DNA from: Deltaproteobacteria bacterium
Lineage (GTDB): Bacteria; Lernaellota; Lernaellaia; JACKCT01
Assembly (NCBI GenBank): GCA_020845895.1
Contig: JADLEX010000023.1
Location: forward strand, 1-64,000
Direction of reading: 5' to 3'
DNA: 64,000 nt
Positions 1,222 to 49,903 of the stretch are shown piece after piece. The translations under genes and the position numbers were made by a program. The notes under the pieces are model-generated. The model did not search any database. It was not told the DNA's origin and saw only the letters and a list, made by a program, of their open reading frames with translations. Numbering within the stretch: position 1 is the first letter of the stretch; every line of letters starts with the position of its first letter.

Positions 1222-1989
1222 TTACACCCCCGCTCCCCTTCGCTTCTCGCGGCGCAGAAACTCGGCGATCTCGGGCCCGATGCGCTCGGCCAGATCGCGC
1301 GGGTCCGCCGCGCCGCCCGCCGTGACGTTCACATGAAAGGTGAACGAATCGCCGCCGATCGTTTCGCCGCGATTGGCGCGCGCGAGGCTCTCCGGCCCGA
1401 TTCGCTCCACCGCGCGGCGGCGCATCACGAACTCGCCGCGCTGCGCGACGATCGGCACCTCGTCGAAACCGAGCGCGAGACCCGCGTGAGCGCGCACCGG
1501 ACCCCCGGCGTGCAGGACGGGGCCACCCGCGTGAATAAAGTTGAGCCATCCCGCGCCGCCGCCGGTGAGCGCCGTCATCAGCGTGCGCATCACCACCATC
1601 TGCGCGGTGATCGAGATCATCTGCTTCAGAACGGCGCGCAGCGAGGTCTGCCAATCGTGCGTGCCGTCCACGAGTTCATCGGCGAGGCCCCGCCCGATCG
1701 CGCCGATCGACGACGTGAACGCCTGGCGCGTCCAATCCGCCGCGCCCGAAGCGCGTCCGATCCACTCGCGAAACGTCTCCTCGGTCATGGCCCGCCGGCG
1801 CGCGTGGGCCGCGCGTTCAGCGACGTACAGCTCCATCTCCAACGCGCGGGCGCGCTCGGCGTTTTCGCGCGCGGCGTCGCCCAGCCCGCGCATCTCCTCG
1901 CGGCTTTGCGCGAGCGTTCGACGCAGTCGCTCGGCACTCTCGGCGGACTCATCGATGCTTGCGGTTTCGGGTTCGAGGATGAGGGGCAT
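1222..1989 (-). CDS. Short phage tail tape-measure-like protein
   Basis: The 255-aa product has a helical, coiled-coil-prone N-terminus (residues 1-100, rich in Glu, Arg and Ala), a hydrophobic middle (KQMISITAQMVVMRTLMTALTG, about 125-146) and a Gly/His-rich stretch with FIHAGG and HAGG motifs followed by FDEVPIVAQRGEFVMRR. That C-terminal pattern is typical of tape-measure C-termini in siphophages and gene transfer agents, which set tail length and pass through the tube. It is unusually short; at about 0.15 nm per residue it would specify a tail near 38 nm. The start has a strong Shine-Dalgarno CCGGAG (1996-2001) six bases upstream. It is the last gene of the minus-strand cluster, an odd place for a tape measure. 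Confidence 0.7.
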   Translation of the reverse strand: MPLILEPETASIDESAESAERLRRTLAQSREEMRGLGDAARENAERARALEMELYVAERAAHARRRAMTEETFREWIGRASGAADWTRQAFTSSIGAIGRGLADELVDGTHDWQTSLRAVLKQMISITAQMVVMRTLMTALTGGGAGWLNFIHAGGPVLHAGGPVRAHAGLALGFDEVPIVAQRGEFVMRRRAVERIGPESLARANRGETIGGDSFTFHVNVTAGGAADPRDLAERIGPEIAEFLRREKRRGAGV

Positions 1990-2007
1990 TGGGGGCTCCG
2001 GAGAGAT

Positions 2008-2031
2008 TGTTGGTTTTTGGTTGTTGGTTGT
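2008..2031 (-). promoter_or_regulatory. CA-rich leader before the tape-measure gene
   Basis: On the sense (minus) strand this reads as tandem ACAACCAAC/CCAAAAACCAAC units, followed by the CCGGAG ribosome-binding site and the start codon at 1989. The same kind of leader precedes the genes starting at 3641, 12769, 39815, 48220 and 48650. It has almost no G and should be unstructured in RNA. Its function is unknown; CA-rich leaders can act as ribosome stand-by or enhancer sequence, but that is inference. Confidence 0.5.
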
Positions 2032-2037
2032 CGGGAG

Positions 2038-2107
2038 GCCCTCACCCCCGTCCCCTCTCCCCCCCGGCGGGCGAGGGGTGGCGAGCGAAGCGAGCCGGGG
2101 TGAGGGC
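2038..2107. repeat. Palindromic CCCTCACCCC...GGGGTGAGGG repeat, copy 1
   Basis: This element begins CCCTCACCCCC, contains CCCTCTCC facing a GAGGGG arm, and ends GGGGTGAGGG, so it can fold into a long hairpin. Related copies lie at 12818-12902 and 15137-15206. All three are in spacers of the phage-like cluster or just upstream of it. Similar elements are widely dispersed in proteobacterial genomes. Here it lies between the chaperone stop and the CA leader of the tape-measure gene. Confidence 0.75.
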
Positions 2108-2109
2108 CT

Positions 2110-2807
2110 TCATTCCCCATTCTTCATTCGCAATTCTTCATTCTCCATTCCCGCCGCCTCCTCCATCGCCTGCGCCACCAGTTCCGGTTCGTCGGCTCGC
2201 AGCGCGAGGCCGAAGCGCAGCCGCGCGTGTCGGCGCAGCAGCGCGAGCGAGAGCGGAGTGACGAGCAGCATCGGGCAGCGGTCCACCACCTCCCCGGCGA
2301 CGACCGTGCGAAAACGCGGATTCGATCCCGGTGGGCAGTTGCGAAGCCGACGCAGCCGTGCGTCGCAGCCGTTGCAGTCCCACGCCGCCGACGTTACGAA
2401 GACGCCCGCGGCGAATCGGAGTTTTTTCTTTCCCCCTCCCGCAGCACCGACACGTCGCGGATCGCCGCGAGAATCTCCAGATAGAGCGGCGCGGCCGACG
2501 CCCCGGCGCGCTCCCGGGCCGCGGCGACCGCCGCGCCGTCGGCGATCTCCTCGCCGTCCGCGAAACGCAAGTGTTCGACCCGCGTCACGTGCCGCGTGAG
2601 CGTGTCGCGTACGGTGTCGGGCGCGAGCGCGAATCCGTCACCGTCGCGCGTCCACACCGAGGCGCGCTCGTACTCGGCTACCGTCATCGGCCGCAGATGG
2701 AACGCGCACGGCGCGTAGTCGCGGTTCTCGCACGCCCGCCGCCGCTCACCGCCGAACTCGGGGATGTAGGGAACGATCTGTTGCGGATTCACGCGTTCAA
2801 ATTCCAT
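2110..2807 (-). CDS. Tail assembly chaperone, long form made by -1 frameshift
   Basis: Reading the first 129 codons from 2807 and slipping back one base at A AAA AAC (2421-2427) continues translation to a TGA at 2110-2112, giving a 232-aa fusion. The downstream frame is open from above the slip site to 2110 and has no plausible start of its own. The extension adds a Cys pattern (WDCNGC, then RNCPPG, then VDRCP) and a helical region. Lambda gpG/gpGT and most siphophage tail chaperones are made this way, one gene before the tape measure, as here. The final 12 residues (MENEELRMKNGE) are encoded by an intergenic-type repeat, which supplies the stop codon. Confidence 0.7.
2111..2150. repeat. ATTCTTCATTC-type repeat at the end of the chaperone extension
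   Basis: The plus strand shows repeated CATTCTTCATTC/CAATTCTTCATTC units. Related sequence occurs at 2893-2980 (in both orientations, so hairpin-forming) and at 3755-3795. Each copy lies at or over the stop codon of a tail gene. Confidence 0.65.
2394..2807 (-). CDS. Tail assembly chaperone, short form
   Basis: The 137-aa zero-frame product begins MEFERVNPQQIVPYIPEFGG and has the charged, helical character of tail assembly chaperones (gpG type), which bind the tape measure during tail assembly. It ends at TAA 2394-2396, a few codons after the A-rich slip site. The start has a Shine-Dalgarno-like CCCGGAG eight or so bases upstream. It lies one gene before the tape measure, as expected. The assignment rests on position, size and the frameshift signal more than on sequence. 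Confidence 0.65.
   Translation of the reverse strand: MEFERVNPQQIVPYIPEFGGERRRACENRDYAPCAFHLRPMTVAEYERASVWTRDGDGFALAPDTVRDTLTRHVTRVEHLRFADGEEIADGAAVAAARERAGASAAPLYLEILAAIRDVSVLREGERKNSDSPRASS
2421..2440 (-). promoter_or_regulatory. Programmed -1 ribosomal frameshift signal
   Basis: The sense strand carries heptamer A AAA AAC (2427 to 2421) in the correct phase: the zero-frame codons are AGA AAA AAC. About seven bases upstream is the purine block GGGAGGGGGA (2440 to 2431), resembling an internal Shine-Dalgarno. The E. coli dnaX frameshift uses the same layout (an SD-like stimulator upstream of A AAA AAG). GC-rich sequence downstream could form a hairpin between CGCCG and CGGCG arms. Confidence 0.7.
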
Positions 2808-2892
2808 GGGGGCTCCGGGGGTTGGAGGTCGGATGAATGCGTTGTGGATCAGTCATGCTGACGGCGCGCGCGGCCGAGGATTGGGCAACATC

Positions 2893-2980
2893 AAATGATG
2901 AATGGCGAATTGCGAATGGAGAACCTCAGCTTCTCTTGCTGCATTCTTCATTCCACATTCACCATTCTTCATTCTTCACC
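2893..2980. repeat. Inverted ATTCTTCATT-type repeat between two tail genes
   Basis: The left part (2893-2921) reads ATGATGAATGGCGAATTGCG and the right part (2942-2980) reads CATTCTTCATTCCACATTC, so the arms are roughly inverted copies. The right arm contains the TGA stop (2976-2978) of the 221-aa gene. It may act as an RNA hairpin or attenuator between the two genes. Confidence 0.55.
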
Positions 2981-3641
2981 CCGCGTCGTACTCGCAGCGC
3001 GGCGAGCACCAGAGCAGGAGTTGGAACGCCGCGCCGTGCGCCGCGCGCTCGTAGAGCATCAGGCGGCCCTCGTCATCCGAGCCCGCCGCGCCCACGTAGA
3101 ACGCCAGCTCGTAGTCGTGCTCGCCGTCGTTGTAGGTTCCCGTTTTCTGAAAGACGCGCGTGGACGATCCGTCGATCGGTCGCGCCACGCCGCCGCCCGT
3201 GTACCACGCGCCGAAGATCGGCTTGACGCTCCCGCCTTCGCTGCCCAGCAGGTTCGACTTGAGCAGACCCTCGCTCGAACCGCCGGGCAGCGCGTTCGCC
3301 GGATGATCGAGAAAGATGACCGATCCGCACACGGTGACGTAGCGGTTCGTGAATCCGCCCGCGGCCAGCATGCCGCCGTAATCGTCGCGGTCGGCGAGCA
3401 CGCGATACGATCCGTCCGACCCGGTCGGCGTCGAACCGACGACGTGGATCGTGAACCCGCCGTCGCGCTCCTGTTCCACCTGCGCGTCCGATCGCCCGCG
3501 CACGAAGTCGCACTTCACCGCGCGCAGGAATCGCTCGTTCTCCGTCACGCGCGTCGCGAAGCTCTGCCGCGTCGGCGTCCACAATCCGGGCGCGCTCTGC
3601 GCGACGAAGGCGTCGCCGTTGTTCGTGTTCCAGCTCGACAT
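2976..3641 (-). CDS. Virion or tail protein of unknown role in phage-like cluster
   Basis: This 221-aa protein has no family I recognise. It has no signal peptide or membrane segment, is Gly- and aromatic-rich, and looks like a mixed beta protein (for example GGFTIHVVGSTPTGSDGSYR and YVTVCGSVIFLDHP). The start at 3641 is supported by a CA-rich leader and a CCGGAG ribosome-binding site. It lies between the hub-like 573-aa protein and the tail chaperone, so a distal-tail, baseplate or fibre-accessory role is the natural inference. Its stop codon lies inside an intergenic-type repeat. Confidence 0.55.
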   Translation of the reverse strand: MSSWNTNNGDAFVAQSAPGLWTPTRQSFATRVTENERFLRAVKCDFVRGRSDAQVEQERDGGFTIHVVGSTPTGSDGSYRVLADRDDYGGMLAAGGFTNRYVTVCGSVIFLDHPANALPGGSSEGLLKSNLLGSEGGSVKPIFGAWYTGGGVARPIDGSSTRVFQKTGTYNDGEHDYELAFYVGAAGSDDEGRLMLYERAAHGAAFQLLLWCSPRCEYDAG

Positions 3642-5511: not shown

Positions 5512-5515
5512 CGCC

Positions 5516-8500
5516 TCACCCCACCGATTCATCGATCGCGAGGCGCACGTCGGCGTGATTCCACCCGCTGCCCTCGCGGCGCAGTGACGCGCCGAGGTAT
5601 CCATAGATCACGTCGCGCGCCGGGTCGTCGGCCTCGCCGCTCGCGTGCGGCGCGTCGGTGCCCTGCGAGAGACGCGTGGGATCGAGCACAACCAGCACGG
5701 GCTTCACCTGCCGGTGCCGCCGCCAGATTGTCTCGAAGGGCTGCGTTTCGTCCGGCGTGAGATCGGCGAAGACGAGATCGACGCGGCGATACGACGCGAG
5801 ATCGACCGCGCGCCGCGCCTGGCCGAGCGTCGCGGTCGTCGGCGACGGGTCGGTCCACGCCACGCCGATGCGCTGCGAATAGTTGTGCGAGGGCGTGAAG
5901 CACATCGTTGCCTCGTTCAGAATCACGCGGCCGATGGTCCACGGCGTGTCCTGCCGCGCGGGGTCCGCGTCGAAACGCGCCTCCGTGCGCACGCGCCACC
6001 AGCGACGCGACACGCCCGGCCGATGCGCGACCAAGGGCCGCGTCGCCACGCCGGAGAGATCGACCGAAAAGAGGCTCGCTCCGGAAAAGCTCGAATCGTC
6101 GCACGCCGCGAGCCGCACGCTCATATCGCGCAGTCCCGAGAGCGAGGAGATGTCGGCGAAGTTGTGGCCGAGCAGCGCGACCAGGTCGATATTGCGCGCG
6201 AGGATGAGATCGAAGACGAGCTCCGCGCGGTAAAGAATGCCGTCCGGCATGACGAGCCGGTCGCCGAGCCCGTCGCTCTTCCACGCCGTACCCAAGTCAT
6301 TCGCGCGCACGTTCGACACGGGAAATCCCGCCGCCGCGCTGTTCGTGAAGACGCGCCCGCGATCGCCCGTGAACGCGAAGGGGCCCTCGTCGCCGTGGGC
6401 GATCATGACGCGGGCGACGGCGCCGTCGGCCGCGGCGAGCGCCGTCCCCGCGACGAGCACGATGGACGCGCCGACGGACGCCGAGGTCTCGCCCGACACA
6501 TGGCGAACGCGCGCGTGCACCGTCTTGAGACCCGCGCCCGCCGTCAGAAGATGCGCGAACGCGGCGCTCGCCGCACCCGCCGGCCAGTCGCGCCAGGGCG
6601 ATGCGTGCTCGGCCTCGCCGTCGTTCCACACCCGCGCCTGCCACACCGCGCCGTCCACGTCGCCGGCCTGTGCACCGCTCGACGCCGCGACCGTCACGTG
6701 CACGCCGCGCGCCGTCGCCACCGCGCCCCCCTCGTCGATCGCGATCGCCGTCACCTCCGGCGCGCCGCGATACTCCACCCGGTCGCCGTAAAGCGTCTGC
6801 GCCGCCAGCAACCCCGCGTTGCCCGCCTCGTCGTGAAAAACCCAGCGGTATTCGTGGCGACCCGGCGCGGCCTGCGTGTCCTGAATGATCGTGTACGCGT
6901 CGGCAGGCTCGCCGTCAGGCGCGGGAAACGCCACGTCGAGCGAATGATCCCACGCGCCGTCCGTCACCGTCTCCCAGCCGTCCGCGCGAAGCCGCTGCCA
7001 CGCGCCGCCTTCGATGCGCCGTTCGATGTGCGCGTGCAGGTAATCCGCGGGAATCGGCTGCGGCGAGCGAGCGCCCGTGCGCACCACCGCGCGCGTATCG
7101 TGCGTCGATTCGGCCCACGCGTTCGCGCCGAGCGGGGCGGCGAAGTCGGGCGTGATCTGCCCCGCGCCGCCGCCGTCGGCGTGTCCCGCGTAGCCGTATC
7201 CGTAGCCCCACGCGTCGCCGTAGAGCGGATCGGCATCCGACCGGCATCCGTAAATGAAGGAAGAGCCCCGCCAGTCGACGCACCACACGGGCGCATCCAC
7301 CAGCGGCTGCGCGTGATCCCACGCGGTCGTGTACGAGCGCATCGGAAGCACGTTGATGTCGTGCGCAATGTCCGACGTGTCGATTTGCCGCGCGCCCGTG
7401 GAGCCGCCGACGACGATGGACGCTCGATTGTCGGATACCGCGACGCACCGGATCGCCTGCATGGCGTCGATAACCGGAATCGCCGCGCCGCTCGTCGCCG
7501 TGCCGACCGTGTTCGACACCACCGACTCGCGTGCGAGCGCGCCGTCATACGCGCCGTGATCGAGACGCACCACCTGCACTTTCGCATTCACGTCGCCGAA
7601 GACGAGGGCGAAGGCGCGCGGATCGCTCCCCGACACGCTCCGGGCGCTCACGGCCGCGGCGGTGATGTCCTCGGCGAGAAGCCCGGCATGGTAGAGCGGC
7701 GACGTGCGGCGCACGCGGTAGTGCGCACTGCTCGTGTCGCGCGCGCGGAAGTGCTCGAAGCGCCCGCGCAGAAACTCACTCGCGGCGACGCACGTGTTCG
7801 TCGCCGACAGCGCGGGCAGCAGCGACGTGTCGTCACCGTCCGGATCGATATGCGTACGAATCGTACTCCACGACACGGGGTCATCCGCATCGTTCGACGC
7901 GCTGATACGGATCTTCACGTCGTCGCCGTCGCGATAGCGATCGACGGCGATCCAGGGATACGTCGCGTACGTCGTCGCGTCGTGCGCGTACACGAGCGCG
8001 CCGCCATGCCACACCTCCATGCGGTTTGCCACGCCCGACGCCGTGCGCCGTCGCACGTGCAGGTATTGCGTCGCTCCGCCGAGCGTGACGAGGCCGACGA
8101 TGACCTCGGTGTACTCGTCGCCCACGGGCGCGGGCTCCTCGTCGATCGCGTATTTCGCGCGCACGCCGATGTCGCCGGGGCACGATTGCAGAAAGTACGC
8201 AGCCGCTTCGCGCAAAGGGCCGCTGTTTGAAAGCGCGAATTCGAGCCCGTTGTTTTGCGCGAGCGTCGCGCCCGGCGTGAGGTCGAGCATCCAGCTGCGT
8301 CCGTCGATGGCGTCGCCGGCGAAGTCGTCGGCGATCGCGCCGACCGAGGCGTCGGGCACGAAGACGTCGCCCGCGACCGCGTGCGGGTTGTGGATGGCGT
8401 GCACGCGCGACCCGATGGCGTAGTACAGCGTGTTGTCGTGATCGCCGGCGGGAAAGAACCCGACGCGCGAGTTCGGGCCGAATTCCAGCGCTCGCAAATC

Positions 8501-8980
8501 CCCGTCCGGCAGCGCGCGAAACCACAACGTCGCCGTGTTTCCATCGTCGCCCGTCCACCCGAGAACGCGGTGCGCCCCGCCGTCGTAAGTGCAGCCGTGA
8601 ACGTCGGCAAAGGTCGCGCCCACATCGGCCTCGATTTCGGGCGCCCAATCCGCGGGCGTCGCGTCCGCGCCGCCCGACATCGCCGTCCACGCAACACGAT
8701 AGATTTTCGCCGGATCGGAATTCGAGATCGCGTACAGGTCGTCACCGCAGCGCGCGACCTTCGCGAATCCTCCCGCGAGCCGCGCGAATCCATGCGGCGC
8801 GTTCGTGTCGAGCCGGATGACGACGAGGTCCGCGTTCGTCGCGAACGCTCCGTAACGCGCGCCGTCCGCCCCCATCCAATGCACGACCGCGTTCACGTAC
8901 TCCGACCCGACGAGAAATTCGTCGGCGTCCCACTCGAGGTCGGCGTGAACGAGATAGCCCTTGCTGTACACGAAACCCAT
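5516..8980 (-). CDS. Giant tail fibre or receptor-binding-like protein
   Basis: At 1154 aa this is the largest protein of the cluster. Residues about 1-200 contain repeated beta blades (YGAFATNADLVVIRL, GDDLYAISNSDPAKIYRV). Residues about 205-375 look like a concanavalin/LamG-type carbohydrate-binding domain opening with DDFAGDAIDGRSW. Residues about 600-820 contain Ig/fibronectin-like segments (HEYRWVFHDEAGNAG). The C-terminal 250 residues hold a discoidin-like jelly roll (VSNVRANDLGTAWKSD, LVFDLILARNIDLVALLGHN) often seen in phage tail proteins. Together these suggest adhesion to surface sugars. It has no signal peptide, as expected for a virion protein. It is preceded by the XhlA-like gene, 16 bp away. 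Confidence 0.6.
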   Translation of the reverse strand: MGFVYSKGYLVHADLEWDADEFLVGSEYVNAVVHWMGADGARYGAFATNADLVVIRLDTNAPHGFARLAGGFAKVARCGDDLYAISNSDPAKIYRVAWTAMSGGADATPADWAPEIEADVGATFADVHGCTYDGGAHRVLGWTGDDGNTATLWFRALPDGDLRALEFGPNSRVGFFPAGDHDNTLYYAIGSRVHAIHNPHAVAGDVFVPDASVGAIADDFAGDAIDGRSWMLDLTPGATLAQNNGLEFALSNSGPLREAAAYFLQSCPGDIGVRAKYAIDEEPAPVGDEYTEVIVGLVTLGGATQYLHVRRRTASGVANRMEVWHGGALVYAHDATTYATYPWIAVDRYRDGDDVKIRISASNDADDPVSWSTIRTHIDPDGDDTSLLPALSATNTCVAASEFLRGRFEHFRARDTSSAHYRVRRTSPLYHAGLLAEDITAAAVSARSVSGSDPRAFALVFGDVNAKVQVVRLDHGAYDGALARESVVSNTVGTATSGAAIPVIDAMQAIRCVAVSDNRASIVVGGSTGARQIDTSDIAHDINVLPMRSYTTAWDHAQPLVDAPVWCVDWRGSSFIYGCRSDADPLYGDAWGYGYGYAGHADGGGAGQITPDFAAPLGANAWAESTHDTRAVVRTGARSPQPIPADYLHAHIERRIEGGAWQRLRADGWETVTDGAWDHSLDVAFPAPDGEPADAYTIIQDTQAAPGRHEYRWVFHDEAGNAGLLAAQTLYGDRVEYRGAPEVTAIAIDEGGAVATARGVHVTVAASSGAQAGDVDGAVWQARVWNDGEAEHASPWRDWPAGAASAAFAHLLTAGAGLKTVHARVRHVSGETSASVGASIVLVAGTALAAADGAVARVMIAHGDEGPFAFTGDRGRVFTNSAAAGFPVSNVRANDLGTAWKSDGLGDRLVMPDGILYRAELVFDLILARNIDLVALLGHNFADISSLSGLRDMSVRLAACDDSSFSGASLFSVDLSGVATRPLVAHRPGVSRRWWRVRTEARFDADPARQDTPWTIGRVILNEATMCFTPSHNYSQRIGVAWTDPSPTTATLGQARRAVDLASYRRVDLVFADLTPDETQPFETIWRRHRQVKPVLVVLDPTRLSQGTDAPHASGEADDPARDVIYGYLGASLRREGSGWNHADVRLAIDESVG

Positions 8981-8996: not shown

Positions 8997-9257
8997 TCAG
9001 CGCAGCGCGGCGATGACGAGGCTCACCGCGAGGGACAGCGCCGCGCCGCCCAGCGCGCCCATCGCCCACCGGCGCGCGTGCTTGAGTTCACTCACGGCTT
9101 CCTCGGCGCGGGCGAGGCGCTCGGCGAAATGGTTGTGCGTGTCGATGCGCCGCTCGATGCGTTCGAGGCGCTCCGTCAGTTCGACGCGCAGTCGGCCGAC
9201 GGCCTCCTCGATGGCGCGATGGAGCAGTTCGTAGAGCTGTGCGTTGCCTTCCGTCAT
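8997..9257 (-). CDS. XhlA/holin-like coiled-coil membrane protein
   Basis: This 86-aa protein has a charged helical N-terminus with heptad character (LHRAIEEAVGRLRVELTERL, about residues 10-60) and one C-terminal membrane helix (about 66-85, WAMGALGGAALSLAVSLVIA). That layout matches XhlA-type lysis-associated proteins and small phage membrane proteins. It starts at ATG 9257, nine bases after the tail-tube gene ends. It is the only candidate lysis-related gene in the cluster; no endolysin was found. It could instead be a membrane anchor or tail accessory protein. Confidence 0.55.
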   Translation of the reverse strand: MTEGNAQLYELLHRAIEEAVGRLRVELTERLERIERRIDTHNHFAERLARAEEAVSELKHARRWAMGALGGAALSLAVSLVIAALR

Positions 9258-9265: not shown

Positions 9266-10588
9266 TCACGCGAAGATCAGCCGGATTTCGTCGTCGCCCG
9301 CGTCCTCGAGACACGGGCCCGACAGCTCCATCGGCACCTCGCGGCCCGCCTCGCTCGCGATCTCGGGGATGCGCGGCGCGAAACGCGGCGCATGGAAGGC
9401 GAAGGTCGCCCCCGGCGCGTTGCCCGCCTGCACCAGCACCTCGATCGGCGCGAACGCCCTGATCCGCCCGCGTAGCCCGGCGGTTTCGGGCGTGAAATAT
9501 CCCGCGAGCGTGAGCGTCGTTTGCCGCCGCGCGGGGTGCGTGAAGCCGCTGGGGCCGGGCGTGCCGAAGCACTCGCGCATACGCACGCCCTCCTCGATGC
9601 GCAGCTTCGCCTCGGTGATCTCGAAGGGCGCGCCGCCGACCAGCACGCGCCCCGCGATGCCGGCCACGGGCACGCCGGTGACGGTCGCGCTGTCCGGCCG
9701 CGCGGGATCGATGCGGGTGCCCGCCGGATGCGGTGAAGGTGTCGTGCCCGCGTAACCGCGCGTCACGCGCAGTTCGTTTCCCCCGAGCGCCACGTCGTTC
9801 ACGCGCACGCACTCGCCCTGAATCGCCAGCACCGCGCCGGGGTCGAAGCGGCCCGCGTCGGCGACGGCGATGGTCGTCTGCGCGTCGGTGATATCCGCGC
9901 CGAGCGCGTCGATCGCCGCCGCGTGTTCGTCCGCGCCGAAGCCCTCGAAGCGCCAGCGCGCCTCGTTTCCCGCGCTCAGCGAAATCTCCACGAGCCGCCC
10001 CACGCACCCCGGGTACGCGAAGGCGAGGCCGTCGAGGAATCGGCGGATCGTCATCGACGACGCGGGCCGCGCGGCGGGGCGATACGCCGTCGCGCCACGT
10101 ACGCTGTCGCCCACCACGGGCGCGGCGGGCAGCGCCGGCGTCCACGCGATCGATCCGCCCGCCGCGTCGGTCACGACGCGCACGTGGTAGTCGTCCCCCT
10201 GCGTGAACCCCACCGCGTCGCCCACCTGCGCGACCTGCTGCGCAACGGTGCACGACGTCGCCGTGGGCGCGGCCGCCACCGTGGTCGTGCCGGAGGCCGA
10301 CGAGGAGAGTGCGTGCGCGGCCAGCAACGCGTGCGCCGCGCCGGGGCCGGTCTCGCCGGGCATCAGGTAGCCCTCGATCTCGTATTCGAGCGAACGGCGG
10401 CGCGTGACCTGATCGGCCGTGCCGCGCCCCGCATGGCGCTCGTCGCGGGCCGCGCGCTCGTGCGTGAGGGTGAAGGCCGCGCGGGTGTGCGCGATCGCCT
10501 CGTCCGCGTCCGCGTCGGGCGCGATGCCGTAAGACGACTCGGCGGTGACGTAGAGCTGCTCGAAGAGAGGATTCGGGTAGTGCGTCAT
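9266..10588 (-). CDS. Major tail (tube) protein-like
   Basis: This 440-aa protein starts at ATG 10588 (MTHYPNPLFEQLYVTAESSYG), after an AAAAGG ribosome-binding site. The opening, position and content match siphophage tail tube proteins, which begin with a description of a tube monomer followed by beta-rich Ig-like insertions. Residues about 225-330 contain a repeated module (DAQTTIAVADAGRFDPGAVL, then GECVRVNDVALGGNELRVTR) typical of phage Ig-like or adhesive insertions, which explains the length. It follows the tail terminator gene as expected. Its self-assembling role is family knowledge and is not shown by the sequence. Confidence 0.6.
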   Translation of the reverse strand: MTHYPNPLFEQLYVTAESSYGIAPDADADEAIAHTRAAFTLTHERAARDERHAGRGTADQVTRRRSLEYEIEGYLMPGETGPGAAHALLAAHALSSSASGTTTVAAAPTATSCTVAQQVAQVGDAVGFTQGDDYHVRVVTDAAGGSIAWTPALPAAPVVGDSVRGATAYRPAARPASSMTIRRFLDGLAFAYPGCVGRLVEISLSAGNEARWRFEGFGADEHAAAIDALGADITDAQTTIAVADAGRFDPGAVLAIQGECVRVNDVALGGNELRVTRGYAGTTPSPHPAGTRIDPARPDSATVTGVPVAGIAGRVLVGGAPFEITEAKLRIEEGVRMRECFGTPGPSGFTHPARRQTTLTLAGYFTPETAGLRGRIRAFAPIEVLVQAGNAPGATFAFHAPRFAPRIPEIASEAGREVPMELSGPCLEDAGDDEIRLIFA

Positions 10589-10625
10589 GTCCTTTTCCGT
10601 CGCGACGCGCACGCGCGTTCGCGGG

Positions 10626-11057
10626 TCAAACCGTTTCGTGCCAGACGATGTCGAAAAGCGCCGCCGCGCGCAGGCCCGATTCGCCGAAGGTCGATTCCGC
10701 CGTGCGTTCGACCGCTTCGGTGAGCGCGGCGCGCGCGCCCCGCGTGGGATCGGCGAGCAGGGCGCGGTCGATGTCGCCGAGCAGGGCTTCCATCGCGGCT
10801 CGCGCCATCGCCGCGTCCGCCCCGCGCACGTGCGCGGTGACGCGCAATCGCATCGCGCATCGCCTTCGCCGCGCGGGCATCGACGACGTGCGCACGCGCT
10901 CGACCTGCGCGACGAGGGACGGGTAGCGCGGTAAGAGCCCCGGCGGAACGGGCCCGGTGCGCACGAGTTCGACGTCCGTGCCGAATCCGTTCGCACGCGA
11001 AATCGCTCCGAGCGCGGCGAGGGCGTCGCCGAAAATGCTTTGCGCGAGCGTGCTCAT
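10626..11057 (-). CDS. Tail terminator/completion-like protein
   Basis: A 143-aa protein starting at ATG 11057 (MSTLAQSIFGDALAALGAIS). The size, the position between head-tail connector and tail tube, and the ending AAALFDIVWHETV resemble tail terminator proteins (lambda gpU, minor tail protein Z family), which cap the tube and join it to the head. A basic segment SSMPARRRRCAMRLRVTAH (about residues 59-77) leads into a beta strand. No catalytic motif. The product is inferred chiefly from gene order. Confidence 0.5.
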   Translation of the reverse strand: MSTLAQSIFGDALAALGAISRANGFGTDVELVRTGPVPPGLLPRYPSLVAQVERVRTSSMPARRRRCAMRLRVTAHVRGADAAMARAAMEALLGDIDRALLADPTRGARAALTEAVERTAESTFGESGLRAAALFDIVWHETV

Positions 11058-11091: not shown

Positions 11092-11811
11092 TCAGGCCCG
11101 TCCCGATTCGACCGACCGCGCGACGCGCAGCAGACCCCCGCGACGCAGCAGCCGCCGCGCGGCGAAACACAGCTCGGCGAGCGGCGAAACGGCGCGCGTG
11201 CGAAATCCGCCCGCGCCCGGGCCGCCGACGTCGAGCGATTCGATCCCCGCCGCGGCGGCCGCGATGGCGGCGGACTGCGGCGACACGGCGAGTTGGATCG
11301 CCTGCTCGCACGCGGCTTCGAGCACTCCGCGCGGCAGCGGCGCGACGAGAACGAAGACCTCGTCGGCGGCGACATCGGGCTCGGCGGAAAGCTCGAGCGC
11401 GCCGGTGTCGGAATCGAAGTCGTCAATGCGAAACAGCCCGGCCCGGTCGAAGCGCGCCGCCCCGCCGACGAATTCCGCACGGTCGCGACCGACGAGGTTC
11501 TCGCTGCGCACCGTCGCTCCGTCCACCTCGCTCGCGCGGGCGAACTCGACCGGGTGTCCGATGATGGGGACGCCGATCGCCTGGCGCGGCCAGCCCATGC
11601 CGTGCGAGAGCGCATCGGCGACGAGCGGGGCGCGGCCGATCGTCCGCGACGCGGCGGCGAGATACCGCTCACGTCGCGCGTTGCCCGTCTCGCCCTCGCC
11701 CAGGTCGGTCCACGCGGTCGCATCGGGGTGCCGCGCGAGATACACATCCGCGAACGCGAGATCGACGATGCTCTCGGCGGCGGGATCGCACAGGGTGGTG
11801 TTGAGGGCCAT
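11092..11811 (-). CDS. Head-tail connector/adaptor protein
   Basis: This 239-aa protein starts at ATG 11811 (MALNTTLCDPAAESIVDLAF) after AGGACGAGG; an upstream in-frame ATG at 11850 was rejected for lack of a ribosome-binding site. Its N-terminal half (TYLARHPDATAWTDLGEGE..., RRERYLAAASRTIGRAP) resembles the DnaT-like/gp6-like adaptor family whose members start by describing an alpha-helical bundle under the portal. The middle (EFARASEVDGATVRSENLVG, FDSDTGALELSAEPDVAADEVFVLV) is beta-rich. It follows the coat gene and precedes the tail terminator, the canonical adaptor slot. Confidence 0.6.
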   Translation of the reverse strand: MALNTTLCDPAAESIVDLAFADVYLARHPDATAWTDLGEGETGNARRERYLAAASRTIGRAPLVADALSHGMGWPRQAIGVPIIGHPVEFARASEVDGATVRSENLVGRDRAEFVGGAARFDRAGLFRIDDFDSDTGALELSAEPDVAADEVFVLVAPLPRGVLEAACEQAIQLAVSPQSAAIAAAAAGIESLDVGGPGAGGFRTRAVSPLAELCFAARRLLRRGGLLRVARSVESGRA

Positions 11812-11905: not shown

Positions 11906-12769
11906 TCACTGGCTCCAGACGTCGACGATCAGGTCGTCGTTCAGCATCGCGTAGCCGTAGATGACATCGACGGTGACGAGGGTGCCGAGGTACTCCGGCA
12001 CGTAGCTCGCCTGCACGCGCGGCCCGAGCTGGATGGCGAGGGCGATGGCGTGGCGCTGGAACATGACGCTGTGAAACGTCTCGATGCCGCTCTGGGTGCT
12101 GCTCGAAATGTTGTTCGACAAGTGCACGCGGCAGCCGAGGATGTCGCCGACGAGGCCCGTCGCCATCGGCGCGTTGGGGTCGCCCGGAGAAAGGTAATCG
12201 CGGTTCGTGAAGCCCGGCAGCGCCAGCAGCCGCGCCTTCAGGTCGGGGCCGACGACCAGGAAGCGGTCCTCGACCGGCGCGTCGGCGCTGTCGAGGTAGC
12301 GCATCGCGGCGACCAGAGCCTGGCCGACCTCCTCGTCGTCGCCGATGGCCGAAACCTGGCGCGCGGCGAGGGCGTGGAGGCCCAGCAGGTGCGTGTCGAT
12401 CGCGCGGGCGATCGCGTGGCCGGCCTTTTTCGTGTAGATCTCGCGCAGGCTGCTCTTCGCCTGCACCGCCACGATGTCCTCGATCAGGAAGCTGACTTCC
12501 TTGTGGTTCGCGAGCGGGATGCTGACCTTGTCCTCGGTGGTGGACTGGGGCGTGACCTGCGCGTTGGGGGCTTTGGTCTGCGCGGCGAAGTTCGACACGC
12601 GCGGCACGTGGATGACGTCGCCGCCGTCCGCCGCCACGTCGTCGAAACGCGCGACCAGATCGGCCATGACGAGGTTCTTTTCCGCGGCCTCGAGCACGTC
12701 GAGGGCCCACAGTTCGGGGATGAAATTCGCGGCGGTCGTGGTGGTCACGTGGGCGTTTCCGAGGGCCAT
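11906..12769 (-). CDS. Major capsid (coat) protein, P22 coat-like
   Basis: The 287-aa protein starts MALGNAHVTTTTAANFIPEL and contains ALDVLEAAEKNLVMADLVAR, then VIHVPRVSNFAAQTK and DKVSIPLANHKEVSFLIED. This opening is characteristic of the P22 coat protein/HK97-fold capsid group. The E-loop, A-domain and P-domain order follows from length. A separate scaffolding gene precedes it and no head protease is present, consistent with a P22-like assembly route. The start at 12769 has an AAGGAGT ribosome-binding site (12774-12780) and a CA-rich leader. Its identification anchors the whole cluster as capsid-forming. Confidence 0.8.
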   Translation of the reverse strand: MALGNAHVTTTTAANFIPELWALDVLEAAEKNLVMADLVARFDDVAADGGDVIHVPRVSNFAAQTKAPNAQVTPQSTTEDKVSIPLANHKEVSFLIEDIVAVQAKSSLREIYTKKAGHAIARAIDTHLLGLHALAARQVSAIGDDEEVGQALVAAMRYLDSADAPVEDRFLVVGPDLKARLLALPGFTNRDYLSPGDPNAPMATGLVGDILGCRVHLSNNISSSTQSGIETFHSVMFQRHAIALAIQLGPRVQASYVPEYLGTLVTVDVIYGYAMLNDDLIVDVWSQ

Positions 12770-12904: not shown

Positions 12905-13477
12905 CTATCCTTCTCCCCGCGCGGCGCTCTCCAGTTCCGCGCGGCGGCGGCGCAGCTCGACGAGCGTCGTCATCCGGGGCGCGGGCGCGGGGGAGGGGGA
13001 GCCCGCGGACCCCGCGCCGCCGGACGACGCGCTTTTCGCCAGATTCGGATTCTCGGTCAGGAACGCGCGCACGGCCTCGGCGAAACGCGTTTCGTCGTAA
13101 CGCGCCGGGCCGGTCGGTCCCGCGAGCGCGAGTTCGGGCGACGTGCCCTCGCCGGGCCACTCGACGCGCGGCGCGAGCAGCGACACCACCTGGTCGGGGC
13201 GGTACGCGCCGCACTCGGCGGCGGCGTCGGACAGGAGCTGGCGCGAACGCGTGTCGCGGTAGCGGCGCTCCCATTCCTTCGCCGTCGCCAGCAGCCGGTC
13301 GCGCTCGACGCCCAACGCCTCGGCGCGCCGCGCCTGCTCGTGCGCCGCGCGCTCGGTCTCGTCCATGCGGCTCGTCTCGACGCGGGTGACGGCTTCGTCA
13401 ATTTGCGAAGACAGACGCTCGATGGCGGCGTTCACGTCGGCCGCGAGTTTGGTGAGGGGATCGTTCGGGTCATCCAT
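12905..13477 (-). CDS. Scaffolding-like protein
   Basis: This 190-aa protein starts MDDPNDPLTKLAADVNAAIE at ATG 13477. It is strongly helical and charged through residues 10-85 (coiled-coil heptads, ERRYRDTRSRQLL), followed by RYDETRFAEAVRAFLTENP, a Ser/Gly/Pro linker and a short basic C-terminal helix (VELRRRRAELESAARG). A helical body with a small basic tail between portal and coat is the signature of phage scaffolding proteins, whose C-terminal helix binds coat subunits. No protease motif was seen. A longer upstream reading in the same frame is rejected because it overlaps the portal gene. Confidence 0.65.
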   Translation of the reverse strand: MDDPNDPLTKLAADVNAAIERLSSQIDEAVTRVETSRMDETERAAHEQARRAEALGVERDRLLATAKEWERRYRDTRSRQLLSDAAAECGAYRPDQVVSLLAPRVEWPGEGTSPELALAGPTGPARYDETRFAEAVRAFLTENPNLAKSASSGGAGSAGSPSPAPAPRMTTLVELRRRRAELESAARGEG

Positions 13478-13500: not shown

Positions 13501-14871
13501 TCACGATTCGATTTGGTCGCCCGTCGCGACCTCGCGCAGTACCTCGGCGCGCTGATCGCCGGGCAGTTCGCGCAGCACCGCGCGGGCGAGGCGCTCCAGC
13601 ACACGACGGCGAAAGACCGGCCCGACGCCGAGTGCGAGGGTGCGTTCGCTCTCGTCCAGCAGCGCCAGCGGTTCGCTGACGCCGAAATCGCCGGGGAAGC
13701 GGATGCGAGCGTTCCAGTCGGGCGCGGCGATCGCCAGCGCGCGCTCGAAGGCCCGCGCGACATTGTCCGCCGCGTCGGCGAGCGCGTGGTTGGTGTCGAG
13801 AAAATCGAAGGCCTTGCTGATGCCGCTTTGCACGCGGCCTTCGCGGGCGCTGCCGCGCGACAGGCTCGCGAGCCGGTAGACCTCGTCGATGAGCCCGTCG
13901 ATGCGGCGCATCAGCAGATCGGCCTGCGCGGCGTCTGGGCTGATGTATTCGGGCGCGCGGTGGCCCTCGGGGTAGAGGAAGATCGAGCTGGTGCCGAGCC
14001 GCGCGATGTCGCCGTTTTCGCCGTACTCCGCGGCGCTGCCCTCGGCGACGAGTTGCGAAAACGTCTGACGGTACAGGATCTCGCCGAGCAGCGACCCGAG
14101 GTTGAAGATCTCGCGGTTCACGTGGACGATCGACGCGAGCAGGCTCTCGCCCACCACGGGATCGTCGCCCTCGCGGAATCGGCACGACACGAAGGGCACG
14201 CGCCCGAAGGGATGGTCGCCCTCGTCCACGCACTCCCCCGTCTCGTCGATCAGGGTCCATCCGTTCGCGGTCCACAGGCGATAGCGCGTGCGTTCGACGT
14301 CCGTCGGCGTGCCCGCCGAAGCCTGGGAGACGTCGCGCCGCCGTTCGCGCACGAGCGCCCATTCGAGCCCGCCCGCGCCGCCCGCGTTCCAGTTCAGAAA
14401 GTCGCCGGGCAGCACGAGATACAGATAGCTGCGCAGGCCGAGCGCGAGCTCGTCGGCGACGGTCGCGGGGCGCGCGTCGGTGCGCGGGCGATCGACGCCG
14501 ATCACCACGTGGCCGTAAACCGCGGCGAGGGTCAGCGCGCGCTTCATGACGTCGACGAGGCCGTGGCCGCGCCCGTCGGCGTCGGCGAGCAGCGCGGGCG
14601 CGCCGGCCTCGGGAAGGATGGTCGGGCCGACACGGAAGATCGACGCGACGTAGGTGTCCACGACCGGGCGGCAGTAGTTGAGGTGGAACGCGCGGGCGAG
14701 GCGTCGCCGGTGGTCGGCGGCGTTTTCGAGCCGATGGGAAAAAAGATTGGACGCCGTCAGGTAGTCGGCGCCTCCCTGGAAACTCTGCCAGGCGAGACGC
14801 CAGAAGGCGCGGCGCGATTCGTGATGGGGATGGCGGGATTCGATCAGATCCCTGAACGGCGTCCGCGTCAT
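13501..14871 (-). CDS. Portal protein
   Basis: The 456-aa protein starts at ATG 14871 (MTRTPFRDLIESRHPHHESR) with an AAGGAG ribosome-binding site ten bases upstream. It contains RRLARAFHLNYCRPVVDTYV, LVDVMKRALTLAAVYGHVVI and ISPDAAQADLLMRRIDGLID, the pattern of SPP1/P22-type phage portal proteins, with clip, wing and long stem helices in the usual order. Portals form the 12-fold ring through which DNA is packaged with terminase. It is the first structural gene; no terminase precedes it, which is where one normally lies. The large terminase is instead at 48650. Confidence 0.75.
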   Translation of the reverse strand: MTRTPFRDLIESRHPHHESRRAFWRLAWQSFQGGADYLTASNLFSHRLENAADHRRRLARAFHLNYCRPVVDTYVASIFRVGPTILPEAGAPALLADADGRGHGLVDVMKRALTLAAVYGHVVIGVDRPRTDARPATVADELALGLRSYLYLVLPGDFLNWNAGGAGGLEWALVRERRRDVSQASAGTPTDVERTRYRLWTANGWTLIDETGECVDEGDHPFGRVPFVSCRFREGDDPVVGESLLASIVHVNREIFNLGSLLGEILYRQTFSQLVAEGSAAEYGENGDIARLGTSSIFLYPEGHRAPEYISPDAAQADLLMRRIDGLIDEVYRLASLSRGSAREGRVQSGISKAFDFLDTNHALADAADNVARAFERALAIAAPDWNARIRFPGDFGVSEPLALLDESERTLALGVGPVFRRRVLERLARAVLRELPGDQRAEVLREVATGDQIES

Positions 14872-33823: not shown

Positions 33824-34021
33824 CGACAAGATCCGCGTCCCGTTCCCCCAGTGCGGGGCGCGCGCGAGGGAAAACGCAATGTACGGGAAAAGCACAACGG
33901 GCGAGCGGATCTCGTCCTCAAAACGAACGCGGCGGCGGGGCCGCCCCCGCCGCCCAACTCACGTCGCAACGACGATCGCGCGGATTCGTTCCGCGAATAT
34001 CGAGTGGCGAACGGAGGAATC

Positions 34022-34699
34022 ATGAGCGGACCGAAGAACGAAGGGTTTATCGGGCGACTCTCGGAGCTCATCGAGGAACTCGGCGGCGGCCACTACTCGC
34101 GCTTCGCCCGAATCGTCGGCACGGGCGCCACGACCATCGACAACTACATGCGCGGCAAGAGCGTGCCGGGTCTGAACATGATCGTGGACATCTGCCGGCA
34201 GTGCGGTGTGACGCCCAACTGGCTGATTTTCGGATGGTCGCCGAAATTCGGCGCGGCCTCCCGCCCGATGCCCGAGTCGATCCGGCTCGTGCACGCGGGA
34301 GAGGCGGGCGTCGTGTCGAGCGACGACTTCCAGACCGTGCCCATCCTCAAACCCGATGCCTGGCGAGATCCCGCGTGCTTTCGCGTCTGCGCGGAGACGA
34401 TGGAAGGGTTCACGGTTTCGCATGCCAAGCCCGGCTCGCGCCTCGCCGCGATCCGCATGCCCGACGACGCAATGGGCGACGAGGTCGCGCGCGGCGACCT
34501 GATCGTCTTCGACATGGAGAGCCGCGAAGCGGCCGCGATCGAAGGACACCTCGTCGCCGTGAAGTTCGACGATGCGGTCACCGTGCGTCGCGTAATGGAC
34601 GAGCGATTTCTGGCGAACGACGTGCGCCGCCACGCGCCGCAAAAGGCGATGCGTAGGCAGATCCTCGGCGCGGTCGTGGAGGTTCGCAAAAGCGTGTGA
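34022..34699 (+). CDS. CI-like repressor with degenerate S24 peptidase domain
   Basis: The 225-aa protein starts at ATG 34022 after CGGAGGA. Residues about 8-72 form a CI-type DNA-binding domain (HYSRFARIVGTGATTIDNYM, then GVTPNWLIFG). Residues about 120-215 follow the LexA/CI S24 pattern (RGDLIVFD, HLVAVKFDD, VTVRRV). The nucleophile position, normally Ser in a DSM motif, is Ala150 (PDDAMGDE), and the general-base Lys is Arg189. Self-cleavage should be impossible, so classical SOS induction is not expected. It sits 200 bp after comM. It may regulate the dispersed phage-like genes; that is inference. Confidence 0.75.
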   Translation: MSGPKNEGFIGRLSELIEELGGGHYSRFARIVGTGATTIDNYMRGKSVPGLNMIVDICRQCGVTPNWLIFGWSPKFGAASRPMPESIRLVHAGEAGVVSSDDFQTVPILKPDAWRDPACFRVCAETMEGFTVSHAKPGSRLAAIRMPDDAMGDEVARGDLIVFDMESREAAAIEGHLVAVKFDDAVTVRRVMDERFLANDVRRHAPQKAMRRQILGAVVEVRKSV

Positions 34700-47940: not shown

Positions 47941-48147
47941 GGAATGCCCTCTCGTGTGACGCGTTGATAGCAGAAATCCGTTCGCAAGAGAAACTCGGCA
48001 CGTCGTAACGCCTCCCGGCGCGTCGTGACGTACCTCGACGCATTTCGCCGCCGACACCCGTTCATCCGGCGAAGGGTGAGGGAGCGCGTTTCGCCTTGCG
48101 ACGACAGGGCAGGTGCGGGCGCACTCGACGGCGGCTTTTACAGATAT

Positions 48148-48175
48148 GAACAGCCGAGGGCGGCTGTTCCACATG
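48148..48175. repeat. Intergenic copy of the palindromic GCACAGCCG element
   Basis: This copy (inverted orientation) differs from those inside the 36033 gene at two paired positions: GAACAGCCG on one arm and CGGCTGTTC on the other, so C-G became A-T in both arms. The compensatory change supports selection on a hairpin. A CA-rich leader follows it. Confidence 0.75.
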
Positions 48176-48219
48176 ACGGACTCCGGGTCGACCAACGACC
48201 AACGACCAAAGACCCACCA

Positions 48220-48420
48220 ATGACCGAAGAAACCTTTCATGCCATGTGGGAAGCCGTGCGCGGGCGGATCGCCGAGATGCTCGCGGGCGAATTTCCCGAC
48301 ACCGATCTCGACGAGATCACCAAGCTGCTGGAGCGCGTGCAAAAAGGCATCGCCGCCGCGCGCGACCGCGGCGAGGACGTGATCGTCGTCAACATCGCGA
48401 TTCCGGGTACTGAAGAATAG
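48220..48420 (+). CDS. Small acidic protein upstream of the terminase
   Basis: The 66-aa protein (MTEETFHAMWEAVRGRIAEM, ending VIVVNIAIPGTEE) begins at ATG 48220 after ACCAACGACC/GACCAAAG CA-rich sequence, with no Shine-Dalgarno. It is helical then strands. Its place, upstream of the large terminase on the same strand, is where a small terminase subunit would lie, but no helix-turn-helix is recognisable and 230 bp of repeats lie between. Function unknown. Confidence 0.5.
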   Translation: MTEETFHAMWEAVRGRIAEMLAGEFPDTDLDEITKLLERVQKGIAAARDRGEDVIVVNIAIPGTEE

Positions 48421-48482
48421 CGGGAGTCGACGACCGTGCGGATGTCGATTCAAGCGGGCGGATGTCGGCTCAGGTGGGGTAT

Positions 48483-48548
48483 GTCATTCTGAGCGAAGCG
48501 AAGAATCTGCGGTGGAGAAGGAAGATCCTTCGCTGCGCTCAGGGTGAC
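48483..48548. repeat. TCATTCTGAGCGAAG-type inverted repeat
   Basis: Arm GTCATTCTGAGCGAAGCG (48483 on) pairs with CGCTGCGCTCAGGGTGAC (to 48548). This is a widely dispersed intergenic palindrome in many bacteria. It lies upstream of the terminase gene, followed by a CA-rich leader (about 48575-48646). Confidence 0.75.
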
Positions 48549-48574
48549 AAGAGTCGGCATACGACCACCGGCGA

Positions 48575-48646
48575 ACGAACGACGACAAACGACGAACAAC
48601 CAACGGCCAACGACCGATAACCAACATCCAACAACCAACAACCCAT
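48575..48646 (+). promoter_or_regulatory. Long CA-rich leader before the terminase start
   Basis: Continuous GACGACAAACGACGAACAAC and AACATCCAACAACCAACAAC sequence runs into the GTG at 48650. No Shine-Dalgarno is present. It is the longest of the CA-rich leaders in the window. Confidence 0.5.
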
Positions 48647-48649
48647 TCC

Positions 48650-49903
48650 GTGCTCCACCTCTTCGCAAACTACCACCCCCACGACGGCCAAAAGCGGCTG
48701 CACCGCGCGGGCACGCGCTTCGTCGCGCTGTGCGCCGGGGTGCGTTCGGGCAAGACGTACGGCGCGGCGCGCGAGTTCCTGCGACGCGTATACGCCGACC
48801 GTTGGGCCAAGTCGGGATCGCTGCTCTACTGGGCCGTCGCGCCCACGCACGATCTGGGCGAGGTGCAGTGGCGCGAGGTGATGAGCGCGCTCGCGGGTCC
48901 GGTCGCCGTGATCGTGCGCAACGTCCACCGCACCGACCGGCGCATCGAGCTGGCGGGGGACATCTCCGTCGAGTTCAAGAGCGCGCACGTGCCCGAGCGG
49001 CTCGTGGGCGTCGGCCTCGACGGATTGTGGATCGACGAGGCCGCCCGCGTGGATGAGCGCGCGTGGACCGGGCAACTGCGCATGCGACTGTCGGACCGGC
49101 TCGGCTGGGGACTTTTTTCGACCACGCCGCTCTCGCGCAACTGGTTCTTTCGCGAGATCTGGCGGCGCGGCGATCCGGGCGACGCACTGGCGTTACCCGA
49201 CTACGGCCGCGCGCATTTCACCACCGCGGAAAACACCGCGCTGCCGCACCTGGCCGCCGAGGTCGAGCGCGCTCGCCGCGAATTGCCCGCGCGGTATTTC
49301 GAGCGCGAGTATCTCGCGTCGTTCGATGCCTTCATCGGCCAAGTCTTCGAGGGCTTCGATCGCCGCGCGCACGTGTTTGCGGACGCCGACGCGCCGTCGC
49401 GGTTCGACGAGGTGCGCGTAGGCGTGGACTGGGGATTCCGAAACCCCGGCGCGATGATCGTGGTCGCCCGCGACGGCGACGGGTGCTGGTGGACGCTCGA
49501 CGAGCGCTACGAACGCGGCTTGCCAGTGGTAGGGGATGGACGCACGTGGGTTGCGATCGCGCGTGAACTCGCCGAGCGGTGGCGCCCGTCGGCCTTCGCG
49601 TGCGATCCCGCGCGGCCGGAGTACATCCGCGCGCTGCGCGGCGCGGGATTGCCGGCGCGCGCCGCGAAAAACGACGTGGCCTCGGGCATCGCGCGCATCT
49701 GCACGCTGCTGCACCCCGATCGCCCCGGCGGGCCGCTGCTGCGCGTGCACGCGGGGTGCGTTCAGCTTCTGTCGGAAATCCCGCAATACCGGTGGCGCGA
49801 CGACGATGGTGCGCGTGAAGAGCCCGTGAAGCAGGACGACCATGCGATCGACGCGTGGCGCTATGCCCTCGTGACCGACCCGCACAAGCCGGGTTTCTGG
49901 TGA
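48650..49903 (+). CDS. Phage terminase large subunit
   Basis: The 417-aa protein has the complete packaging-motor pattern: Walker A AGVRSGKT (29-36), Walker B GLWIDEA (125-131, Asp129-Glu130), coupling motif STTP (157-160), and an RNase H-fold nuclease with VGVDWGFRNPG (Asp260), FACDPARPEY (Asp319) and KQDDHAIDAW (Asp396/397/401). It translocates DNA through a portal into a procapsid and cuts it. It is intact, yet no other structural gene adjoins; the nearest are 34 kb away on the other strand. The start is a GTG at 48650 without a Shine-Dalgarno. The stop is followed after 100 bp by a glycosidase gene. Confidence 0.9.
   Translation: MLHLFANYHPHDGQKRLHRAGTRFVALCAGVRSGKTYGAAREFLRRVYADRWAKSGSLLYWAVAPTHDLGEVQWREVMSALAGPVAVIVRNVHRTDRRIELAGDISVEFKSAHVPERLVGVGLDGLWIDEAARVDERAWTGQLRMRLSDRLGWGLFSTTPLSRNWFFREIWRRGDPGDALALPDYGRAHFTTAENTALPHLAAEVERARRELPARYFEREYLASFDAFIGQVFEGFDRRAHVFADADAPSRFDEVRVGVDWGFRNPGAMIVVARDGDGCWWTLDERYERGLPVVGDGRTWVAIARELAERWRPSAFACDPARPEYIRALRGAGLPARAAKNDVASGIARICTLLHPDRPGGPLLRVHAGCVQLLSEIPQYRWRDDDGAREEPVKQDDHAIDAWRYALVTDPHKPGFW

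What the first reader, a model, noticed from the sequence alone, without database searches (positions are those of the whole stretch)
1222..49903. A dispersed, phage-derived particle locus (possible gene transfer agent)
The sequence shows a contiguous portal-scaffold-coat-connector-terminator-tube-tail set (1222-14871, minus) with none of the usual terminase, protease, integrase, replication or endolysin genes. A complete large terminase lies 34 kb away on the opposite strand (48650-49903) between an unrelated methylase and a glycosidase. A CI-type repressor with an inactive peptidase lies between them. Housekeeping genes separate the parts, and base composition of the structural genes resembles the host. 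Split packaging and structural genes, short tape measure and dead repressor are known traits of gene transfer agents; the reading is inference.
Basis: partly seen in the sequence, partly recalled or inferred. Interest (0 to 1): 0.8.

Follow-up and report, generated by a model that had tools for sequence, protein, structure and literature searches.

The report
Candidate two-locus gene transfer agent
A bacterium from the little-known phylum Ca. Lernaellota (FEN-1099) carries an intact kit for phage-like, DNA-packaging particles, with the packaging motor kept 34 kb away from the shell-and-tail genes; comparison with relatives suggests the bacteria have kept it as their own device, probably to move DNA between cells, but no particle has been seen.

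Summary
A 13.7-kb one-strand operon (1222-14871, minus) encodes portal, scaffold, coat, adaptor, tail terminator, tube, tail proteins and a 255-aa tape measure, with no terminase, protease, integrase, replication or lysis gene. An intact large terminase (TerL, 48650-49903, plus) lies 34 kb away and is the genome's only match to its family (phrog_2). The two parts belong together: in family f3 of the same class (G004, G005, G006) orthologous TerL, portal, coat and tail genes sit in one ~20-kb cluster. In the window's family f1 the split predates the genus: G001 has the same structural order, and TerL stands apart in G000, G001 and G002, always behind a 66-aa ORF that could be a small terminase without a DNA-binding domain. 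All 13 genes compared between G000 and G001 are intact with dN<dS; TerL and portal trees follow RpoB; no virus contig shares more than two distant homologues. This fits the comparative criteria for gene transfer agents; Brachyspira GTA also keeps terL outside its cluster. Against it: the coat gene is mosaic, G002 lacks structural genes, G003 has a different, damaged head, and nothing was tested in culture. The 'dead repressor' is real but not tied to the locus.

The parts
13501..14871 (-). portal protein (456 aa), first gene of the structural operon
   Evidence: phrog_145 E 2e-58; 65% identical to G001, 46-59% to f3 genomes
12905..13477 (-). scaffolding protein (190 aa)
   Evidence: position; G006 orthologue hits phrog_206 head scaffolding; orthologues in G001, G006
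11906..12769 (-). major capsid protein, HK97 fold, T7/P22-like (287 aa)
   Evidence: phrog_267 E 5e-43, Phage_capsid_2; solved T7-like coats
11092..11811 (-). head-tail adaptor (239 aa)
   Evidence: G006 orthologue hits phrog_477 adaptor Ad1
10626..11057 (-). tail terminator (143 aa)
   Evidence: G001 orthologue hits phrog_4204 tail terminator
9266..10612 (-). tail tube protein (448 aa)
   Evidence: PF18906 Phage_tube_2 E 3e-14, phrog_290; orthologue in 6 of 7 class genomes
8997..9257 (-). small ORF of the operon (86 aa), function unknown
   Evidence: gene call only
5516..8980 (-). large tail protein (1154 aa), inferred tail tip/hub
   Evidence: orthologues in G001, G003-G006; no phage homologue
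3790..5532 (-). tail-associated protein (580 aa), function unknown
   Evidence: orthologues in G001, G003-G006; no phage homologue
2976..3641 (-). conserved protein (221 aa), low-confidence beta-sandwich; possible distal tail/receptor-binding protein
   Evidence: 63% identical to G001; model pLDDT 59
2394..2807 (-). conserved tail-module protein (137 aa)
   Evidence: orthologues in G001, G003-G006
2110..2271 (-). small ORF (53 aa), conserved in G001
   Evidence: 43% over 47 aa to L073:3167-3376
1222..1989 (-). short tape-measure protein (255 aa), last gene of operon
   Evidence: phrog_24 E 4e-13, PF09718; orthologues 238-310 aa
48220..48420 (+). 66-aa ORF directly upstream of TerL in all three f1 genomes; candidate small terminase lacking a DNA-binding domain (inferred)
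   Evidence: about 50% identity in G001 and G002; two-helix model, pLDDT 73; no family hit
48650..49903 (+). large terminase TerL (417 aa), ATPase and nuclease motifs intact
   Evidence: phrog_2 E 4e-46; sole phrog_2 match in genome; motifs invariant
33851..34699 (+). S24-type regulator with lost catalytic Ser and Lys; considered and not assigned to the locus

Best explanation
The two loci together encode a host-kept, phage-derived DNA-packaging particle that most likely works as a gene transfer agent. Structural proteins from the 13.7-kb operon build a scaffold-dependent, protease-free head of the T7/P22 type with a short non-contractile tail (about 38 nm from the 255-aa tape measure). TerL, expressed from its own locus with a candidate small terminase that lacks a DNA-binding domain, fills heads with whatever cellular DNA it meets, and the particle delivers it to related cells. 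Shown: gene content, intactness, orthology to a united cluster in the sister family, the shared split in family f1, dN below dS, no integrase or replication genes recognised. Inferred: headful random packaging, the role of the 66-aa ORF, release and delivery.
For: Orthologues of TerL, portal, coat, tube, tape measure and tail proteins lie in one ~20-kb cluster in f3 (G004, G005, G006), so the separated TerL is the partner of the structural genes. G001 has the same structural order; TerL is apart from structural genes in G000, G001 and G002. All 13 genes compared are intact between G000 and G001 with dN<dS. TerL motifs are invariant; nearest solved relatives are TerLs of phages D6E, P74-26 and SPP1 (phage names from own knowledge of the entries). 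TerL and portal trees agree with RpoB. TerL is the single phrog_2 match in the genome. No att-like repeat and no tRNA at the G000 cluster; no integrase or replication gene recognised in G004's ~20-kb cluster or flanks. No viral contig shares more than two distant homologues. Precedent: BhGTA terL outside the cluster (PMC9662315); GTA small terminases lack the DNA-binding domain (PMC11841831).
Against: The coat gene is not vertically inherited throughout: G004 and G005 coats are 25% identical although their portals are 62%. Gene order differs among f3 genomes. G002 has TerL and the 66-aa ORF but no portal, coat, tube or large tail protein. G003 joins the same tail module to an unrelated, apparently damaged head module beside a tRNA. 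In G004 an intact S24 repressor, an amidase and a holin-like ORF adjoin the cluster, as in a prophage. No lysis gene was found in f1. The carbon-saving amino acid signature of RcGTA was not seen in the coat. No particle or packaged DNA is known.
Confidence: 0.6

Rival explanations
1. An ancient but ordinary lineage of temperate phages of this phylum: the f3 clusters are short or cryptic prophages with a CI-type repressor, and the f1 loci are prophage remnants split by rearrangement and slowly decaying.
For: Intact S24 repressor, amidase and holin-like ORF at the G004 cluster; mosaic coat gene; different head module and adjoining tRNA-Leu in G003; G002 lacks structural genes.
Against: No integrase or replication gene recognised in any cluster; 13 of 13 genes intact and constrained between two genera in which TerL stands outside the cluster; TerL and portal follow the host tree; no virus with this gene set.
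Confidence: 0.2
2. A host-kept phage-like killer particle that packages host DNA but does not deliver it usefully (a PBSX-like bacteriocin).
For: Same gene content would be expected: head, short tail, TerL, no replication genes. The 221-aa protein could be a receptor-binding part (low-confidence model).
Against: Nothing specific; head, portal and TerL stay constrained, which a pure killer would not need, but PBSX keeps them too (own knowledge).
Confidence: 0.12
3. The terminase and the structural operon are unrelated leftovers of two different phages that happen to lie in one window.
For: Opposite strands and 34 kb of other genes between them.
Against: Their orthologues are adjacent in G004, G005 and G006, and TerL and portal identities fall off in parallel across the genomes.
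Confidence: 0.04

Closest known systems
BhGTA (VSH-1) of Brachyspira, Brachygtaviriformidae
   Same: A single terL lies outside the structural cluster, is conserved across the genus and separate from phage terLs; compact structural cluster of 16.3 kb (PMC9662315).
   Different: Different host phylum; here head and tail genes have recognisable phage relatives, and the BhGTA cluster holds an endolysin gene. No sequence comparison with BhGTA was run.
RcGTA and relatives, Rhodogtaviriformidae
   Same: Structural operon plus separate loci, mostly vertical descent, small terminase without DNA-binding domain (PMC9662315, PMC7947584). Short tape measure and no replication or integration genes (own knowledge).
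   Different: RcGTA terL sits in the cluster; RcGTA's other accessory loci were not looked for one by one; the carbon-saving signature was not found in the coat.
PBSX-type defective phages of Bacillus
   Same: Host-kept particle that packages chromosomal DNA (own knowledge).
   Different: PBSX is one contiguous element and kills rather than transfers (own knowledge); no sequence relation was tested.
Phages with phrog_145 portal, phrog_267 coat or phrog_2 TerL
   Same: Each gene has phage relatives: portal 28-30% in ~110-kb phages, coat 33-40% and TerL up to 41% in IMG/VR.
   Different: No virus contig examined holds more than two of the genes; the 1154-aa and 580-aa tail proteins have no phage homologue.

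Membership tests
Gene transfer agent (criteria of PMC9662315) | Particle proteins homologous to tailed-phage proteins | tested here: met
   portal, coat, tube, tape measure, TerL, and scaffold, adaptor, terminator through orthologues
Gene transfer agent (criteria of PMC9662315) | Fully endogenised, often across several loci | tested here: met
   two loci 34 kb apart with housekeeping genes between; TerL also apart in G001 and G002
Gene transfer agent (criteria of PMC9662315) | Mostly vertical inheritance, co-diversification with host | tested here: inconclusive
   TerL and portal trees match RpoB; coat mosaic in f3, G003 head replaced
Gene transfer agent (criteria of PMC9662315) | Packages mostly random host DNA | not testable with these tools
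   needs particles
Gene transfer agent (criteria of PMC9662315) | Cannot package its whole own genome | not testable with these tools
   head capacity unknown; in the window the gene set spans 48.7 kb of chromosome
Gene transfer agent (criteria of PMC9662315) | DNA delivered to other cells | not testable with these tools
   needs a culture; no cultured member of the phylum is known to me
Gene transfer agent | Small terminase without DNA-binding domain (PMC11841831) | tested here: inconclusive
   66-aa ORF upstream of TerL in three genera, two-helix model, no HTH, but no homology to a known small terminase
Gene transfer agent of the RcGTA type | Carbon-saving amino acid make-up | tested here: not met
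   coat not lower than viral homologues (2.76 vs mean 2.71 side-chain carbons per residue); TerL only slightly lower; few GC-matched controls; not claimed for all GTAs
Active prophage | Integrase, replication genes, att sites | tested here: not met
   none recognised in the G000, G001 or G004 clusters; no att-like direct repeats at G000 or G004
Tailocin (phage-tail-like bacteriocin) | Tail genes without head and packaging genes | tested here: not met
   portal, coat and TerL present and constrained

The most novel reading that the evidence does not exclude
An independently evolved gene transfer agent in phylum FEN-1099 (Ca. Lernaellota/Podoxiota), whose packaging motor and a DNA-binding-domain-free small terminase left the structural operon before the genera of one family diverged, while the sister family still shows the united ancestral cluster with repressor and, in one genome, lysis genes: a before-and-after series of phage domestication.
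Probability: 0.5. Interest if true: 0.75.

Novelty: new member of a known kind. Interest (0 to 1): 0.6.

Why it matters
Gene transfer agents with established genes are known from very few lineages (Alphaproteobacteria and Brachyspira, with Desulfovibrio and Methanococcus less well characterised), and a review asks how widespread they are in distant groups (PMC11841831). A family-wide, intact, two-locus candidate in an uncultured phylum would be a new independent origin. It repeats the orphan-terL arrangement of Brachyspira, which suggests that separating the motor from the shell genes may be a recurring step in domestication. The sister family with a united cluster makes that step open to study.

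Tried and rejected
A fixed chromosomal position: an lgt gene near both the G001 TerL and the G004 cluster turned out to be different paralogues. The window's S24 regulator as the locus's own repressor: nearest relatives lie elsewhere. Conserved lysis gene: the G004 amidase has no match in other class genomes at E 0.001, only a 26% pairwise hit in G003. Carbon-saving signature: not seen in the coat. Fold of the 221-aa protein: model too weak, no significant match. RNA families in the window or G006 cluster: none. A profile of the 1154-aa tail protein could not be used for a virus scan. TerL as a pseudogene in G002: one frameshift near homopolymers, but rpoB in that assembly is also frameshifted, so sequencing error is likely. 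Tailocin: excluded by head and packaging genes.

Full report
CHECKING THE OBSERVATION. The window is bases 1-64000 of a 123,877-base contig (C23) of a 4.98-Mb genome in 171 contigs. Portal, major coat, tube and tape-measure C-terminus are clear at the stated places; scaffold, head-tail adaptor and tail terminator, for which I rely on orthologues in sister genomes, are confirmed there. Thirteen ORFs fill 93.5% of 1222-14871, all on the minus strand. TerL at 48650-49903 is complete with Walker A, Walker B and three nuclease acidic residues invariant in five genomes. It is the only phrog_2 match in the genome, and no phrog_38 terminase exists there. The rest of the contig to its far end shows no recognisable phage gene (read by eye from protein starts).

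WHOSE GENOME. FEN-1099 is a GTDB phylum also called Ca. Lernaellota or Podoxiota, with 7 genomes in one listing (PMC11382960). The assignment of the window to this group rests on the tool's kinship table (G006 is in the same class) and is therefore an inference. Seven class members are held, in three families: f1 (G000 = window, G001, G002), f2 (G003), f3 (G004, G005, G006).

THE TWO LOCI BELONG TOGETHER. In f3, TerL lies 1-5 kb from portal in one cluster that also holds coat, tube, tape measure and the large tail proteins. In G004 the cluster covers about 20 kb and includes an S24 repressor with Ser and Lys intact, TerL, scaffold, coat, a glycosyltransferase, portal, tail genes, a holin-like ORF and an amidase; no integrase or replication gene was recognised. 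In f1 the structural genes of G001 keep the window's order on two short contigs (C212: portal, scaffold, coat; C159: a glycosyltransferase fragment, then adaptor to tape measure), while its TerL is on C133 with at least 2.9 kb and 7.5 kb of unrelated sequence on its sides. G002 has TerL on a 172-kb contig and no portal, coat, tube or large tail protein found anywhere. So the separation is shared by three genera and is not a misassembly of one genome. A 66-aa ORF precedes TerL in all three.

SELECTION AND DESCENT. Between G000 and G001 all 13 genes compared are intact with dN below dS (Nei-Gojobori; TerL 0.29/0.85, portal 0.30/0.99, coat 0.26/0.60, tape measure 0.45/0.92; RpoB 0.17/0.62). dS is near saturation, so exact ratios are not reliable; the third-position excess is the safer sign. 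TerL and portal trees give the f1/f3 split with G004+G005 inside f3, as RpoB does; with viral TerLs added, the class TerLs are one side of a branch (support 93/93). The G002 TerL row was spliced across a frameshift, so its long branch is partly artefact. The coat is the exception: G006 is close to f1 (57-62%), while G004 and G005 differ from each other (25%) although their portals are 62% alike. Coat genes have therefore been exchanged or have evolved very fast in f3.

VIRUS RELATIVES. Portal: 28-30% to ~110-kb phages, one distant IMG/VR contig. TerL: up to 41%. Coat: 33-40%. Among the viral loci fetched none shares more than two genes with the set. The 1154-aa and 580-aa tail proteins have no match in 50,697 phage records but are present in f1, f2 and f3.

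THE ODD RELATIVE. G003 has the same tail module joined to TerS, TerL (phrog_38) and a short portal (phrog_12) of an unrelated head type, low-GC insertions, a protease-like fragment (my reading of the sequence) and no recognised coat gene, next to a tRNA-Leu; no duplicated tRNA end was found. It looks like a replaced and damaged head, which fits phage-like module exchange and weakens a claim of pure vertical descent across the class.

MECHANISM. The coat and scaffold place the head with T7/P22-type, protease-free heads, so the missing protease is not evidence of domestication. The 238-310-aa tape measures predict tails of about 36-46 nm at the usual 0.15 nm per residue. TerL's nearest solved relatives are D6E, P74-26 and SPP1 TerLs (SPP1 is a headful packager, own knowledge). 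Known GTA small terminases are reported to lack the DNA-binding domain (PMC11841831); the 66-aa ORF would fit, but that is position plus a two-helix model only. Release is unexplained in f1: no lysis gene was found.

COMPARISON. GTA criteria in PMC9662315 that can be read from genomes are met (phage-like particle genes, full endogenisation over several loci) or partly met (vertical descent). The experimental ones are open. BhGTA of Brachyspira is the nearest precedent: its sole terL is outside the structural cluster and conserved in the genus (PMC9662315). I found no paper on mobile elements of this phylum. Verdict: probable new GTA lineage, a new member of a known kind, unproven without particles.

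Noticed in passing
L034:12452-19427 (G006 cluster): Four copies of a 300-nt piece of the tape-measure gene, 1.7-2.8 kb apart; three truncated copies with different 3' ends precede the full one, with unidentified ORFs between them.
   Followed up: partly
L073:13458-14420, L031:4514-6280, L032:13203-15101: A glycosyltransferase gene sits inside the structural cluster in G001, G004 and G005 but not in the window; G006 has a methyltransferase gene in its cluster (L034:9636-10478).
   Followed up: partly
window 41588-43551: A low-GC gene pair (AAA_21 OLD/AbiEii-like ATPase and a DUF4435-like protein) is inserted between gatA and gatB; possible defence pair.
   Followed up: no
window 45781-48453: Low-GC, N6-methylase-like large protein directly beside the terminase locus, possibly a restriction-modification enzyme.
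   Followed up: no
window 15973-19424: Two radical-SAM genes (spore photoproduct lyase family) next to a ParB_N + N6/N4 DNA methylase in the lowest-GC part of the window.
   Followed up: no
window 33851-34699: S24/HTH regulator that lost catalytic Ser and Lys; its close relatives in G001, G002 and G004 also have Lys replaced by Arg, so a non-cleaving regulator subfamily exists in this class.
   Followed up: partly
window 48421-48649: About 230 bp between the 66-aa ORF and TerL contains what looks like a dispersed repeat; in G002 the two genes nearly touch and in G001 they are 55 bp apart.
   Followed up: no
G000:C109:20143-20433 (outside the window): A weak second match to the large tail protein profile (E 2e-5) inside a 1167-aa open frame elsewhere in the genome; probably a shared domain.
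   Followed up: no
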